DNA of 64,000 bases. Origin: Alternaria dauci (taxonomy: Eukaryota; Ascomycota; Dothideomycetes; Pleosporales; Pleosporaceae). The first letter of the stretch is position 1. Every line of letters begins with the position of its first letter. A program made the position numbers and the translations under genes. Positions 55,155-64,000 of the stretch are shown in pieces. The DNA is taken from positions 1,178,001 to 1,242,000 of the forward strand of contig NC_091277.1 of NCBI RefSeq assembly GCF_042100115.1, read 5' to 3'. The notes beneath the pieces are model-generated. The model made no database searches and was not told where the DNA came from. It was given only the letters and a program-made list of their open reading frames with translations.

Positions 55155-55262
55155 CCCCCTCCCCTCCCCCGGTCGAGCTTCCTGGCAGCCGGGAGAGATA
55201 GCGTTCAGTTTTTCCCTTCCCCGGTGTGCCAGGTAGTTCGACCGGGGGGGGGGGGGGGGGGG
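55155..55262. repeat. Long inverted repeat with C-tract arm and G19 run
   Basis: The left arm (55155-55187: a 16-nt C/T tract, then GGTCGAGCTTCCTGGCA) is complementary to the right arm (about 55227-55259: TGCCAGGTAGTTCGACC followed by the run of G). Only two bases mismatch in the 17-bp mixed part; the C/T tract can pair with the G run through G-C and G-T. The loop is 39 nt. The homopolymer at 55244-55262 is 19 G. It lies 150-250 bp past the RPT1 stop and could form a hairpin or a G-quadruplex. Confidence 0.75.
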
Positions 55263-55269
55263 TGAGGGA

Positions 55270-55694
55270 GACTGTAGTGCATATATCATGAACAGAGACG
55301 CCACCCCTGTATTTGCCTGGGTAGAGTATCGTTATGTACAGGAAGTTTGTTGATCTCCCTGTAGTTGCCAAGTATGGTGTTCAACTTGGGAAAACTTTTT
55401 CTGATCCCCCTAAGAAGATCAGATGGAAGCAGAATACCCCTCAAAGACCAGATGGAAGTAGAACACTTCAAATAATCACCCCCAAAGACTAGATGGAAGC
55501 AGAACACTTAAAACAACCCCCCTAAAAGAGTAGATGGAAGTAAAAGACTCCGAAATAATTGCCTAAATAGGTAATAGGAGTAAGGGGTGTGAATCACTTC
55601 AGATATTATATACATGTACACCTTTCGTCTCATCTGATCTTGCTGGGGGGATCCGAAGAAGTTTTCCCTTCAATTTCTTCTCTTGTATAGCGTG
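55270..55694 (+). mobile_element. Degenerate relative of the CACGC-TIR element
   Basis: Two units like those of the intact elements begin at about 55306 and 55357 (CCCTGTATTTGCCTGGGTAG and CCCTGTAGTTGCC), and the right end (CTTGTATAGCGTG, ending 55694) matches the element's terminal repeat. Between them lie four copies of a different unit around AGATGGAAGYAGA at 55421, 55450, 55491 and 55532 (spacing 29, 41, 41). No clean left terminal repeat or target duplication is seen, so this copy is decayed or composite. Confidence 0.5.
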
Positions 55695-55766
55695 AGATGG
55701 TATAGTGATCGAGCCAAGTATAGAGAAGCTCGAAGGAGCGCGTGGCAACTGCACCAAGTACCACAG

Positions 55767-56056
55767 CACGCCATACAAGGGAAAAGTCAACGCCCCCTCT
55801 GTAGCTGCCTAGATGGAGTATCGCCATATCAAGATGGATTAAACGCTCCTCTGTAGCCGCCTAGATAGAGTATCACTGTATAAAAAAAGGATCCAAAGCT
55901 CCTCTGTAGCTGTCTGGGTAGAGAGTATTACTATGTAGGGGAAGATGAATTAATCCCCCCGTAGTTGCCTAGGTAGAGTATTTCCATACAGGGGAGATTG
56001 ATAGATCTCCTGTAGATGCCTAGGTAGGGTGTTCGACTTCTCCCTTGTATAGCGTG
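55767..56056 (+). mobile_element. MITE-like element, five internal 52-bp units
   Basis: This 290-bp element begins CACGCCATACAAGGGAAAAG and ends with the inverse of CACGCTATACAAGGGAGAAG, so its terminal inverted repeats are about 25 bp with a few mismatches. It is flanked by ACAG on both sides (55763-55766 and 56057-56060), a 4-bp target duplication. Inside are five tandem units of about 52 bp starting near 55797, 55849, 55902, 55957 and 56009, each opening with (C)TGTAGYTGCCTAGRTAGAGT. It has no coding capacity. It ends 15 bp before the stop codon of the NAPE-PLD-like gene. See the two sister copies at 59195 and 63855. Confidence 0.85.
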
Positions 56057-56071
56057 ACAGTCAAAACACTG

Positions 56072-57220
56072 CTATACCACGACCGTCCCGCCGATATCAC
56101 AGAGGTCGACATCGACTCCCCACCTCAAACCATCCGCCTCTGCACCATTCCGCCAGCGTTCAGGCGGCTCAGTAACTGGTTCGTAGCTCGCCGAGTAGGC
56201 GCCACGGAACGTACCAAAGTGCATACCTATACTCTTCTTACTCTTCACATCCCTATGTATGGCCAAAGAGTCCTGAGGACTAGAGTGCTGGCCAGACAAG
56301 ACAGACCTTGGCTTGAAGCAACCAATAGGCACAAGCGCCAGATCAAAGGGGCCGTATAAATCGCCAATCTCCTTGAAAGCCGGACAAGGTGGATGTGGCG
56401 CGTCGTGGTGCGAGTATTGGTCGTCGGAAAAAACATGACAGTATCCTGTATCTCCAGCAAAGAAGAGTTTCTTGCCGGACGATGAAGGCTCCTTGACGAT
56501 CCAGCTACACCACAGCGTACCGTCAAAGTTCCAGGGTGTGCGCCCGGATCGGTGTTGGGCAGGTGTGCATACCAATTCTACGCCTCCTACGCCCTTTTTG
56601 AATACGGTTATGCCATCCCACCAGTCCATCTCCTCGACCTGGTCGGCCTTGATGCCGGCGCCGAGCCCTGTCAGGACGGTCTTGACACCCAAACCGCAGA
56701 AGAAGCGCAAGTCTCCATTCTGTTTGGCATTCAACTTCTTCAGCGTGTCGGAATCGAGGTGGTCGTAGTGGTCGTGGCTTATGCAAACAGCATCGATTTC
56801 TGGCAACTCGTCGATGGTGCATGGTGGAGGTGTAAAGCGTACGGGGCCCACCATGCCATATGGTCCGACGCGGTCACTCCATACAGGATCGAGGAGGATG
56901 CGCATACCCCTCTCGTTCCCCTCTGAAGCCGTTGTTTCGATGAGGAAACTCGCGTGTCCTATCCATGTCGCCTTCAACCCGTTGGTCGTATTGCTGAAGT
57001 CGGGCTTGTGCACTTGGACCAGGCCTGACCGATCGGCAGGTACAGGGACAAAGTTCTTTGGGGTGCTGAAGCGTGTGCGGAGGGCGGCAACTATGCCGTC
57101 ATTCTTGTACGAGGGCCATGGGTTCTTGAAGTTTGTGGGTGGCTTGCCGATGTGATGGGCTGTGGCGTAGTTGTCTGGCCTGTGTGGCGGCAGCGCGGTT
57201 ATGGAGGACGAGGGAGACAT
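56072..57220 (-). CDS. NAPE-PLD-like metallo-beta-lactamase-fold hydrolase
   Basis: This intronless gene encodes 382 residues. The metal-binding motif HDHYDH (residues 149-154, H-x-H-x-D-H) is preceded by the strand TWIGHASFLI (85-94) and LLDPVWSDR, and later by TPAQHRSGR, the FFAGDTGY loop and a final SIGMHFGTF, the order seen in N-acyl-phosphatidylethanolamine phospholipase D and yeast Fmp30. The family releases N-acylethanolamines or works on mitochondrial phospholipids; substrate is inferred. Its 3' end abuts a MITE, so its 3'UTR probably runs into the element. Confidence 0.88.
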   Translation of the reverse strand: MSPSSSITALPPHRPDNYATAHHIGKPPTNFKNPWPSYKNDGIVAALRTRFSTPKNFVPVPADRSGLVQVHKPDFSNTTNGLKATWIGHASFLIETTASEGNERGMRILLDPVWSDRVGPYGMVGPVRFTPPPCTIDELPEIDAVCISHDHYDHLDSDTLKKLNAKQNGDLRFFCGLGVKTVLTGLGAGIKADQVEEMDWWDGITVFKKGVGGVELVCTPAQHRSGRTPWNFDGTLWCSWIVKEPSSSGKKLFFAGDTGYCHVFSDDQYSHHDAPHPPCPAFKEIGDLYGPFDLALVPIGCFKPRSVLSGQHSSPQDSLAIHRDVKSKKSIGMHFGTFRGAYSASYEPVTEPPERWRNGAEADGLRWGVDVDLCDIGGTVVV

Positions 57221-58020
57221 TTTTGCTGTCCCGTAGTGCCTAAAAAACAGCGCGGGCTTGGGATGGGCTTGAGATGGGCGCGCATGGCTGTGTGTCGTGT
57301 TGCTGATGCTATGACGACGAAGGGCGGATGTGGAGGCGGAGATAGGCAGTGCCCATCGGAGCGCGAGCTGGTCCGGTATGCCGTTGGAGGCGCTGTTTGG
57401 GTTTTGAGGATACGGGGCAGGCCTAAAAAGCCTCCGGGTCGTCTGCCTACGATCTCATTGTCCTTTGAGTAATACAGCCATCGCGTTGGATGCGTCTTCC
57501 GTTATGGGGAGCGTCATGGGGAGCAGGTCCAACCAAGCCAGACCCTGTCATCTCACCCACGTTCTGTCCCGGCCATCCTTCGACACGCAACTCCAACCTC
57601 TTCCTGCATTGGTTAACAGAAGCCGTCATCAGGGCTGACCTAACCCACCAATCTCACATCTCGACGCACACCTCGAGCACCATGGCCTCGGAGACTGCTC
57701 AAGTGGGTACAAGCACCACGGCGCGGCATGCGTAGCCTTGCTCTCTTATCTACCAATAGGACCGACACGTGAGCGCGTCTAGCTTACATGCAGGTACTGT
57801 GAATCTTTCGCTCATCGCCGCCGCCGGAGCTCGAACCAGAAATCTGGAGAATGTACCTTCTACATACGGTAAGGACCGGCTGGGGCTGCAGCGGCCTGGG
57901 TAGGCCGTGGCCAAATTTTTTGAGAGCTTTATAGATGCCGGCTTCCCAGCATGATTGGATTTCCCCATCGCAGTGTATCTCTTTCTCAATTCACCGTCTA
58001 GCTTTAAGGATAAAGACAAG
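57221..58020. promoter_or_regulatory. Divergent promoter, NAPE-PLD-like / RNase T2
   Basis: 800 bp between outward-facing starts. A TTATAGA box lies at about 57930, 90 bp before the RNase start. A possible two-exon frame at 57682-57903 (+) is described under findings; otherwise nothing is seen. Confidence 0.5.
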
Positions 58021-59105
58021 ATGAAGACTACCTTTTCCAAGGCCGGAGCTGCGGCTCTGCTTGCAGCCACGGCAAATGCACAGCTCTACCCCGACCAAAG
58101 TCCCCTGAACCACACATGCCAGCTGCAAGAGCCATTGCTGTCTTGCCCTGCGCAAGACCCCTCCAAAGTGGATTCTTGCTGCGTCGAGACTTTTGGTGGA
58201 CTTTTGCTAAGCACTCAGTTCTGGAACACATACACCGGTCGCGAGTCTGAAGGCCAACTCTTGCCCACCGACACATGGACCCTCCATGGTCTATGGCCAG
58301 ACTTTTGTAACGGTAGTTATACGCAATACTGCGACCTGAGCCGCCAGTACGACCCTATCCCCGGACCAAACACCACCAACGGTCTACCAAATGGAACATT
58401 TGTTCCCCCATACAACGGATCCAACATCGGCACCTTCCTCGAGCCATTTGGCCGCTTCGACCTACTAGAGTACATGAACACTTACTGGATTGCATGGCAG
58501 CAAGACAACCCCGGTTTCTGGGCCCACGAGTTCTCCAAGCACGCAACCTGCTTCTCTACCTTCAACGTTCCCTGCTACGGTCCGCAGTACCGCGAGCACG
58601 AAGATGTCGTCGACTTCTTCGAGACGACCATCAAGTACTACAAGAGGTTCCCAACTTTCGATTGGCTTGCCGCCAAGGACATCACACCCTCAAACTCAAC
58701 CACCTACTCTTACTCTGATCTCGTCGACGTCCTGTATGAGCAGCATGGCGGCATCCCGTTCTTGGGTTGCTCTGGCCCTAGGTACAATGCTACAGATGCT
58801 GGAAAGAACACCACTGACAGGGGTTACACCATTCTGAGCGAGGTCTGGTACTACGAGCATGTAAGTACCACAATGGACAAGTATCTGCGGCTTTTCAATT
58901 AATACTAATGTACGAATAGGTCTATGGTCGTCCCCAGGAAGGCAATGTTATCCCTGTCAACGCTTCCGCTAGCTACCTCACCAACTGCGCTACCACAGAA
59001 GGTGCCATTCACTACCCAGAGAGGACCAACGGGTCAGAGAAGGCTCCTGTAGTTCCGTTTTAAAAGCACGCACAGGGTTAAAAAAATGTATTGTAGTGAT
59101 TATAA
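58021..59105 (+). CDS. Secreted ribonuclease T2
   Basis: Exons 58021-58860 and 58920-59105 (59-bp intron) give 341 residues. The enzyme cleaves single-stranded RNA via 2',3'-cyclic phosphates and is secreted or vacuolar. A signal peptide covers residues 1-20. The two catalytic boxes are present: CAS I with His89 in LHGLWPDFC, and CAS II with His169, Glu170, Lys173 and His174 in FWAHEFSKHATC. The many Cys and NxS/T sites fit an extracellular glycoprotein. The splice restores EHVYGRPQEG, the usual end of fungal RNase T2, and then YPERTNGSEK. After that the frame runs on for 20 residues (GSCSSVLKARTGLKK...) to a TAA at 59103, an unusual tail compared with proteins that stop soon after GSE. Confidence 0.92.
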
Positions 59106-59558
59106 AACCAACGTGTAATGAAAGATAATTCTACCATTGGATTTGGGGTACAAACTTTGTATTGTGATACGTCTGTTTCTAAGGAGATTCGTACCACACT
59201 ATACGAGGAAAAAATCGAACGCTACTCCTGTAGTTGCCTGAGTAAAATGTTCGGTCTTTCTCTTGTATGGCGTGGTACTGTCTTCCTCCAATACTAAGCT
59301 TTTAGTAAGGTGATTTCCGGCCCAATTAATAAGAGGAATAGGTACAGGAATTATGACTTGGTCTCGCATATACGCACGTAGATGAGATCAATGCCTGTGA
59401 CGTCACGCTAACCCGAGGTATGGGTTCTTCTGCACTAGAACTGATCAGACATGGGGAAAGAAGCTTCTCCGTGTAAAGGAATGTCACTGATGAACTAGCA
59501 ATTGATATACAATGCCAAAATAACCTCTAGCTTCTACTCCTATCACTGCACCGTCTCG
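59106..59558. other. Convergent 3' flanks, RNase T2 and Mis18-like gene
   Basis: 453 bp between facing stops; holds the 80-bp MITE and AT-rich 3' flank sequence, no gene. Confidence 0.5.
59195..59274 (+). mobile_element. MITE-like element, single internal unit
   Basis: An 80-bp copy of the same family: left end CACACTATACGAGGAAAAAA, right end the inverse of CACGCCATACAAGAGAAAGA, flanked on both sides by GTAC (59191-59194 and 59275-59278), a 4-bp target duplication. It holds one 52-bp unit (CCTGTAGTTGCCTGAGTAAA). The length difference from the 290-bp copy (210 bp) equals four units. It is inserted 90 bp after the RNase T2 stop. Confidence 0.85.
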
Positions 59559-62966: not shown

Positions 62967-64000
62967 GGACACAGCCCATTGATGCAGTTGTGCCTCGTCG
63001 GTAACTGCAAGTGAGCGGAGATGGTGCACGAAAGAGTTTAGATAGCAACAACTCAAAGTTTGGCGATAGAATGTGTACACAGGGTAGGCGGAACTATCGG
63101 TTTTCTGGTACGCGACGAACGTACGCGTCTCAATCCAGGATACCGTTTCAGCAAGCGCAGTGAGATTGGAAGCGAAGAGGAGGAGAATGGTATGGCCCAA
63201 CAAAAAAAATAAGCGGTTGCGGCGGAGGACGAACCTTGAAATCGAGAGCTAGTTCAGAGGAAGGAAAGGACAAGCAAAATAATTAGCAGGAGTTATTCCA
63301 TGATTAGCCATGCATGAGGCCGAGTGGAGTTAGCGCGCCTCGCTATCAATTTAGATGGGCTCTATTGCGAAAAAGCCGTGAAGGCGTCTCGTGTCGCAAG
63401 CGCAACACGCTAGCTGTTCCATCTCGCGCGATAGCGGTCCTGGGCCTTCCAGCTGTGATTTCCTCTTGTCATCGGACATGAGTGATTCTTCACTGTCCAA
63501 TGCACGCATGTGCCGGCTTGTACAGGCATGGCCTTGTGTTACTGCAGGTCAATTACTGGTAGGTATTATCGACGGCGCAGTTTATTCGTCCCGGGCCACG
63601 CGCCGGCTATCTTTATTGCTCTCAGATTGCAACGATCACAAGTGCCAAGTCTGACCCACAGCATGTGCCAATAAGCATAAACACCTAGGAAAGTCGAGGA
63701 TGATACAATGTCTGGGGCTATATGTTTGCATGCGTGACTATATCTGGCTAGACCAAGTGTCCTGGCTGCGATCCATGGCTTCGTCAGCGGCATTATCCTA
63801 ATTTGTACGTTGCTGTCATGATGCCGGAATGATTACCGGCGGACTCGAGGCAGCCACGCCACACAAGAGAAAAATCAAACACCCTATCTAGACAGCCGCT
63901 ACTAGAGAGCGTTTTGTTTTCTTTTTCTGTAGAATACCCTACCTCGGCAACTACAGGGGGAGTGTTTAATCTTTGTATTGTGCGGCAACTCGGACACTCC
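62967..64000. promoter_or_regulatory. Promoter of the Mis18-like gene and right flank
   Basis: About 1 kb without a supported gene. The minus frame stays open from the ATG at 62966 up to 63203 without another ATG, so some of this may be 5'UTR. The right end holds a third copy of the MITE-like element. Confidence 0.45.
63855..63984 (-). mobile_element. MITE-like element, two internal units, reverse orientation
   Basis: The left end on the plus strand is CACGCCACACAAGAGAAAAA; the other end near 63984 (CTTTGTATTGTGCGG) is a degenerate inverse. Reading the minus strand, two units are visible (CCCTGTAGTTGCCGAGGTAG and a weaker TAGTAGCGGCTGTCTAGATA). The length, about 130 bp, is the size expected for two units. 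Flanks are CAGC (63851-63854) and CAAC after 63984, a possible 4-bp duplication with one change. Confidence 0.65.

What the first reader, a model, noticed from the sequence alone, without database searches (positions are those of the whole stretch)
55767..59274. A MITE-like family whose copies differ by whole 52-bp internal units
Copies of 80, about 130 and 290 bp share about 25-bp terminal inverted repeats (CACGCYATACAAG...) and hold 1, 2 and 5 tandem units. Two have perfect 4-bp target duplications (GTAC, ACAG). Mobile elements with minisatellite cores of changing copy number are uncommon; I know of no described fungal family with this end sequence.
Basis: partly seen in the sequence, partly recalled or inferred. 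Interest (0 to 1): 0.75.

Follow-up and report, generated by a model that had tools for sequence, protein, structure and literature searches.

The report
Fungal mini-transposons with 52-bp modules
A fungal genome carries a family of short DNA elements that once jumped and left 3-4 bp footprints; they come in sizes differing by whole 52-bp modules, and those modules look like old, inherited parts of the elements rather than a live minisatellite.

Summary
Genome-wide, a 26-bp end pattern (2-unit consensus CACGCCATACAAGGGAAAAATCGAAC) matches 175 times with up to 3 mismatches; the reversed control matches 0. Of 64 curated short elements, 31 have a perfect 4-bp target duplication, 8 an exact 3-bp one and 0 one of 5-8 bp. 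Lengths form a ladder of about 79, 130, 181, 236 and 290 bp, read as 1 to 5 units. This is a MITE family. CAC...GTG ends with 3-4 bp duplications are a stated hallmark of Chapaev transposons (PMC4079192, passages), but I found no transposase with these ends.

The architecture is (left-end-like sequence + 20-bp core)n + right end. Units inside one element are no more alike than units of different elements (0.610 against 0.611 permuted), and first and last units have their own character. So "minisatellite of changing copy number" is only half right: unit number most likely changed in ancestral masters, which then spread with a fixed number. MITEs with internal tandem repeats are known elsewhere, so this is a new family of a known kind, as far as my searches reach.

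The parts
55767..56056 (+). 5-unit element of the family (290 bp)
   Evidence: perfect 4-bp target duplication ACAG
55763..55766 (.). target duplication ACAG, left
   Evidence: direct reading
56057..56060 (.). target duplication ACAG, right
   Evidence: direct reading
55767..55792 (+). left terminal inverted repeat (26 bp)
   Evidence: direct reading against the 26-bp consensus
56031..56056 (-). right terminal inverted repeat (26 bp)
   Evidence: direct reading against the 26-bp consensus
55800..55819 (+). 20-bp core of unit 1 (cores of units 2-5 start at 55852, 55905, 55960, 56011)
59195..59274 (+). 1-unit element (80 bp)
   Evidence: perfect 4-bp target duplication GTAC
59191..59194 (.). target duplication GTAC, left
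   Evidence: direct reading
59275..59278 (.). target duplication GTAC, right
   Evidence: direct reading
63855..63987 (-). 2-unit-length element, degraded (the only roughly 130-bp copy found in the window)
   Evidence: nhmmer E 1.5e-20; end with 1 mismatch
55283..55694 (+). truncated copy of the family (right end 55682-55694), split by the insertion at 55388-55668

Best explanation
A family of non-autonomous cut-and-paste DNA transposons (MITEs), mobilised in trans by a transposase that recognises the 26-bp inverted ends and makes a 4-bp (sometimes 3-bp) staggered cut. By end sequence and duplication length a Chapaev/CMC-type transposase is the likeliest source (about even odds on its own). 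Each element is (left-end-like sequence + 20-bp core)n followed by the right end, with n from 1 to 5. Whole units were gained or lost in ancestral master copies, by recombination or slippage between units; masters with a given n then transposed, which gives discrete size classes with the 2-unit class commonest in my sample. Shown: ends, duplications, ladder, unit architecture, lack of within-array homogenisation. Inferred: past transposition itself, the transposase type, the recombination or slippage step. The direction of unit change is unresolved. The confidence is for the MITE reading with old arrays, not for the transposase type.
For: Ends: 175 against 0 control, 81 against 0, on all 10 contigs. 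Target duplications: 31 of 64 curated copies perfect at 4 bp, against 0-2 of 64 at nine outward-shifted offsets, and 0 of 64 at 5, 6, 7 or 8 bp; 8 of 64 exactly 3 bp; 28 of the 61 copies with at most 3 end mismatches are perfect. Every size class holds perfect-duplication copies: 2 of 7, 22 of 45, 5 of 7, 1 of 2 and 1 of 3 for n = 1 to 5, so each form moved as a whole. Ladder: best period 52.2 bp, R 0.93 over 64; without lengths 125-135, R 0.84 over 23, reached by 0 of 10,000 sets of uniform random lengths. Internal copies of the left end: consensus alignment score 12 against a shuffled mean of 2.6, reached by 1 of 5,000 shuffles; for last units 10.5, reached by 0 of 5,000. No homogenisation within arrays: units; junctions 0.685 within, 0.679 between. 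Chapaev hallmark: PMC4079192 passage.
Against: No autonomous partner: among 165 distinct listed ends, 15 convergent pairs lie 351 bp to 15 kb apart, but each has at least one end belonging to a short element, and 0 pairs join two unpaired ends; the listings are capped. PF02992 gave 0 matches, though no control genome rang either; PF13359 gave 0. No listed end lies within 10 kb of 3 Plavaka, 42 DDE_1 or 1 hAT matches. 21 of 64 curated copies match the other flank at 2 of 4 bases or fewer. No empty site was found. The first 127 bases of the 5-unit copy form no unusually stable hairpin (z 0.48). Two elements (L005, L029) have internally similar junctions (0.88, 0.82). Unit number was set from length before cores were placed, and a few splits are poor (L040, L063).
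Confidence: 0.85

Rival explanations
1. A live minisatellite that happens to sit inside a MITE, with unit number changing at each locus by slippage after insertion.
For: Whole-unit length steps. Two 4-unit copies have similar junctions within the copy (0.88 in L005, 0.82 in L029).
Against: Within-element unit identity is no higher than between elements, 0.610 against 0.611, p 0.53, for 11 elements with 3 or more units. Many last units share a variant, CCTAGTAGGG, that the inner-unit consensus lacks. L002 and L005 share their last junction at 0.97, and 3-unit L027 matches it at 0.84-0.87.
Confidence: 0.08
2. Repeated tandem or nested insertion: each element is several single-unit elements inserted side by side.
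For: Each unit begins with a left-end-like sequence.
Against: I saw no right end or target duplication between units in the split copies, and the internal left-end copies generally lack the terminal CAC (ATCGC or similar). Not scanned systematically.
Confidence: 0.03
3. As the best explanation, but the transposase belongs outside CMC, for example to Academ- or Sola-type elements that also make short duplications (their duplication lengths are recalled, not from a call).
For: No CMC partner was found, and end sequence alone does not fix the superfamily.
Against: CAC..GTG ends with 3-4 bp duplications match the stated Chapaev hallmark.
Confidence: 0.35
4. Composite reading: the whole 55767-59274 interval is one 3.5-kb mobile unit bounded by two family copies.
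For: Convergent outer ends 3,508 bp apart.
Against: Each copy has its own perfect target duplication (ACAG, GTAC), and the outer flanks (ACAG left, GTAC right) do not match.
Confidence: 0.01

Closest known systems
Chapaev (CMC) DNA transposons (PMC4079192, passages)
   Same: Ends CAC..GTG and target duplications of 3-4 bp
   Different: No transposase found with these ends; the Chapaev3 members examined there use TWA targets, whereas the 31 perfect duplications here are diverse, with a mild bias to C or G first and G last
BrickBuilt MITE of Porphyromonas gingivalis (PMC4596501, abstract and part 1 of section 7)
   Same: MITE with inverted ends around a tandem array of short units
   Different: Bacterial, IS5-like ends; 23-bp unit; the leader and tail that hold the ends are described as non-repetitive; duplications of inconsistent length
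Xenopus MITE with tandem repeats (Hikosaka and Kawahara 2004; seen only as a cited reference in PMC2872659)
   Same: Tandem units carried inside a MITE
   Different: Not compared in sequence; [quoted passage not shown]
Tetris and Galileo foldback elements of Drosophila (PMC4079207, passages)
   Same: Internal tandem repeats that for Tetris may derive from the terminal repeat; for Galileo, repeats holding extra transposase binding sites are cited there
   Different: Tetris repeats are about 220 bp and sit in its terminal repeats, with 8-10 bp duplications; here the array is one-sided with 52-bp units
Coral CMITE (PMC2872659, abstract and passages)
   Same: Small MITEs with a strongly conserved internal region; tandem arrays
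   Different: TTAA targets; arrays are of full elements, attributed there to replication slippage

Membership tests
MITE (non-autonomous terminal-inverted-repeat element) | Short, shared terminal inverted repeats, many dispersed copies | tested here: met
   64 curated copies of 77-291 bp, too short for a transposase gene (coding not tested otherwise); 26-bp ends, 175 matches against 0 control; listed ends on all 10 contigs
MITE (non-autonomous terminal-inverted-repeat element) | Target-site duplication of short, near-fixed length | tested here: met
   31 of 64 perfect 4 bp, 8 of 64 exact 3 bp, 0 of 64 at 5-8 bp
MITE (non-autonomous terminal-inverted-repeat element) | Demonstrated empty site or polymorphic insertion | tested here: inconclusive
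   Joined flanks of 31 perfect-duplication copies against the loci held, not the whole genome: no two-sided match; no related genome was held
Chapaev / CMC superfamily | CAC..GTG termini with 3-4 bp duplications | tested here: met
   against the hallmark quoted
Chapaev / CMC superfamily | CMC-type transposase encoded by an element with the same ends | tested here: inconclusive
   PF02992 0 matches, but no control rang; 3 broken Plavaka copies, the one boundary read lacking these ends; no pair of unpaired ends 351 bp to 15 kb apart among 165 listed
Minisatellite | Homogenised tandem units, more alike within an array than between arrays | tested here: not met
   0.610 within against 0.611 permuted, p 0.53, 11 elements
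Foldback element (Tetris/Galileo type) | Long inverted arms made of tandem repeats on both sides | tested here: not met
   Array one-sided with a single 26-bp right end in the copies split; one head-to-head copy, L043, is an exception

The most novel reading that the evidence does not exclude
Each unit is a spare recognition module (left-end-like site plus a 20-bp core), and unit number tunes how well the shared transposase picks up an element, so the 2-unit class (45 of 64 curated copies) won because two modules worked best. The core is the best-kept part of the 17 inner units (0.83 against 0.67 for the end-like part; re-located on their own, 0.83 against 0.56-0.65), though units were first located by the core, which favours it.
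Probability: 0.15. Interest if true: 0.6.

Novelty: new member of a known kind. Interest (0 to 1): 0.42.

Why it matters
It adds a fungal family to the few MITEs known to carry tandem modules. Its modules hold copies of the element's own end, and it exists in five size classes in one genome. That makes a natural series for asking whether extra internal sites help a non-autonomous transposon compete for transposase. It also warns that tandem units inside a MITE need not be an active minisatellite.

Tried and rejected
Autonomous partner: PF02992 (0 matches, no control rang), PF13359 (0 matches, 1 control rang), PF18759 Plavaka (3 broken copies), PF03184 (42), PF05699 (1). No listed family end lies within 10 kb of any of these 46 matches. 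Two Plavaka regions were read; one boundary was found, without a CACGC-type end, and the other was not reached. Not every end could be listed: one search lists 100 of 263, 81 of 81, 100 of 175, together 165 distinct. A first scan for long pairs used a hand-made list of 159 ends that had left some out; one search repeats it with the full listings. A long element with ends outside these lists is not excluded.

Unpaired good ends: of the 30, 16 were read; 14 are short family elements with a decayed or missing second end, and 2 (L009, L049) look like chance matches. Two more lie in the window itself.

Empty sites: no two-sided match. Hairpin folding: strong for the 80-bp copy (z -2.37), not for the first 127 bases of the 5-unit copy (z 0.48). 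Introner reading considered and dropped because the borders show no GT...AG pair (reading; not tested on transcripts). RIP: in 44 two-unit copies 502 transitions against 212 transversions, with C>T 146 and G>A 127 against T>C 110 and A>G 119, so no clear sign.

Literature: four spellings of the end are in 0 papers. Listings (several capped, e.g. 20 of 526 and 20 of 44) showed no title or abstract describing such a fungal family. I looked at passages on MITEs in PMC4112212, PMC6034849, PMC3538342 and PMC4522978; PMC3538342 mentions a MITE family of over 200 members in Pyrenophora tritici-repentis, sequence not seen.

Rows dropped: 79 called elements became 64 after length (70-300 bp), end/duplication quality and duplicate filters. 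Three more (L041 no true left end, L043 head-to-head unit, L040 failed split) were dropped, and the window's 80-bp copy added, before the unit statistics; L005 and L027 were added. The 64 still include L041. The caller used duplication match as a tie-breaker, so 31 of 64 is somewhat favoured; 28 of 61 is the count for copies with at most 3 end mismatches, chosen by the same caller.
Full report
The window is part of a 34.9-Mb, 10-contig genome. A ribonuclease T2 exon in it matches a protein cluster named for Alternaria sp. at 96%, and named clusters of other Pleosporales at about 80%, so the host is probably Alternaria or a near relative. That is the only organism evidence I have.

Observation. 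The 290-bp copy at 55767-56056 and the 80-bp copy at 59195-59274 are as described, with perfect ACAG and GTAC target duplications. No 130-bp copy lies between them. A profile built from 44 two-unit copies finds a degraded one at 63855-63987 and a truncated one at about 55283-55694.

The family genome-wide. The exact 13-base end occurs 70 times; with up to one mismatch 263 times against 71 for the reversed control. Longer patterns are cleaner: 81 against 0 and 175 against 0. From fetched loci a simple caller listed 79 elements, of which 64 passed quality filters. This is a sample: loci were chosen from capped listings. Lengths cluster at 77-80 (7 copies), 119-142 (45), 179-184 (7), 234-238 (2) and 279-291 (3). 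The best period is 52.2 bp. Leaving out lengths 125-135, the remaining 23 still show the period (R 0.84; reached by 0 of 10,000 uniform random sets).

Target duplications. 31 of 64 copies have a perfect 4-bp duplication; at nine outward-shifted offsets the count is 0 to 2; none matches at 5 to 8 bp. Eight have an exact 3-bp duplication. Of the 64, 12 match at 3 of 4 positions and 21 at 2 or fewer. Perfect duplications occur in every size class, outside the whole element, so each class moved as one piece. The 31 duplicated sequences are diverse, with C or G first in 26 and G last in 19.

Architecture. Unit number was set from length, and cores then placed at their best matches. This gives left end, core, zero to four further units, and right end. 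The core consensus is about TGTAGTTGCCTAGGTAGAGT. Most splits are clean; L040 and one L063 copy are poor. The stretch before each internal core resembles the left end without its first bases: consensus alignment score 12 against a shuffled mean of 2.6, reached by 1 of 5,000 shuffles, and 10.5 for last units, reached by 0 of 5,000. So a unit is a worn copy of the left end plus core. One copy, L043, has its first unit reversed.

Age of the arrays. For the 11 usable elements with three or more units, mean unit identity within an element is 0.610, and 0.611 when element labels are permuted within position classes (p 0.53). Junctions alone give 0.685 within (29 pairs) and 0.679 between (499 pairs). 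First units agree with first units (0.80) and last with last (0.675), better than first with last (0.58). Many last units carry the variant CCTAGTAGGG, and last units of some 3- and 4-unit copies resemble it. L002 and L005 (4 units) share their last junction at 0.97; L027 (3 units) matches it at 0.84-0.87, while its first junction matches the first of L005 at 0.85. So related masters differ by a whole inner unit. Against a wholly ancient array, L005 has two inner junctions 0.88 alike and L029 two 0.82 alike, which may mark later duplications. I cannot say whether loss or gain prevailed.

Age of the family. 44 two-unit copies have mean pairwise identity 0.79 and a closest pair of 0.96; a GAAGG-ended group of 13 averages 0.88. 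This looks like old, successive bursts; nothing here shows current activity, and nothing tests it directly.

Source of the transposase. CAC..GTG ends with 3-4 bp duplications are given as hallmarks of Chapaev transposons (PMC4079192, passages); lineages of the wider CMCT clade are said to share CA..TG ends in most cases and to make 2-5 bp duplications (PMC12730594, passages). No partner was found: family searches gave nothing near the listed ends. Among 165 distinct listed ends there are 15 convergent pairs 351 bp to 15 kb apart, each with at least one end that belongs to a short element, and none joining two unpaired ends. End listings were incomplete, so absence is not shown.

Known relatives in kind. 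MITE-borne tandem units are described for Porphyromonas (PMC4596501) and Xenopus (reference in PMC2872659), and terminal-repeat-derived repeats for Drosophila Tetris, with Galileo cited beside it (PMC4079207). For Galileo extra transposase binding sites in the repeats are cited there. The present family fits this kind, with a one-sided array and 52-bp modules. My searches listed no paper with these ends or such a fungal family; Repbase was not searched, and the large MITE family of Pyrenophora tritici-repentis (PMC3538342, passage) could not be compared.

Possible role of the units. In 17 inner units the core is better kept than the end-like part (0.83 against 0.67). Units were located by the core, which inflates this; when each part was re-located on its own the figures were 0.83 and 0.56-0.65. 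That is a hint of a repeated functional site, no more.

Noticed in passing
window 55388-55668; L100 (G000:C4, near 1185.7 kb): A second inverted-repeat element, 281 bp, ends GGGAAAACTT..., with 41-bp internal tandem repeats, inserted inside the truncated family copy. Its flanks TTCAACTT/TTCAATTT fit an 8-bp duplication (7 of 8), and the one other copy found has a perfect one (ATAACAAA), which suggests a hAT-type MITE.
   Followed up: partly
window 55157-55262: Imperfect inverted repeat CCCCCGGTCGAGCTTCCTGGCA...TGCCAGGTAGTTCGACCGGGGG ending in a G tract, just left of the truncated copy; perhaps another MITE (reading).
   Followed up: no
G000:C4:2344294-2344426 (L043): A family copy whose first unit is reversed, giving a head-to-head, nearly palindromic element (reading).
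   Followed up: no
G000:C9:248124, C5:980782, C10:416585: Three Plavaka-type transposase remnants, each with 25 in-frame TAG/TAA stops. The two regions read (C5, C10) share at least 6.5 kb at 99.4% identity, and the C5 region is 21-31% G+C per 250 bp: it looks heavily mutated, perhaps by RIP, before being copied.
   Followed up: partly
G000:C3:3003820-3003875 (L039): A 56-bp copy with perfect ACAG flanks whose right end is nearly gone, possibly an internal-deletion product.
   Followed up: no
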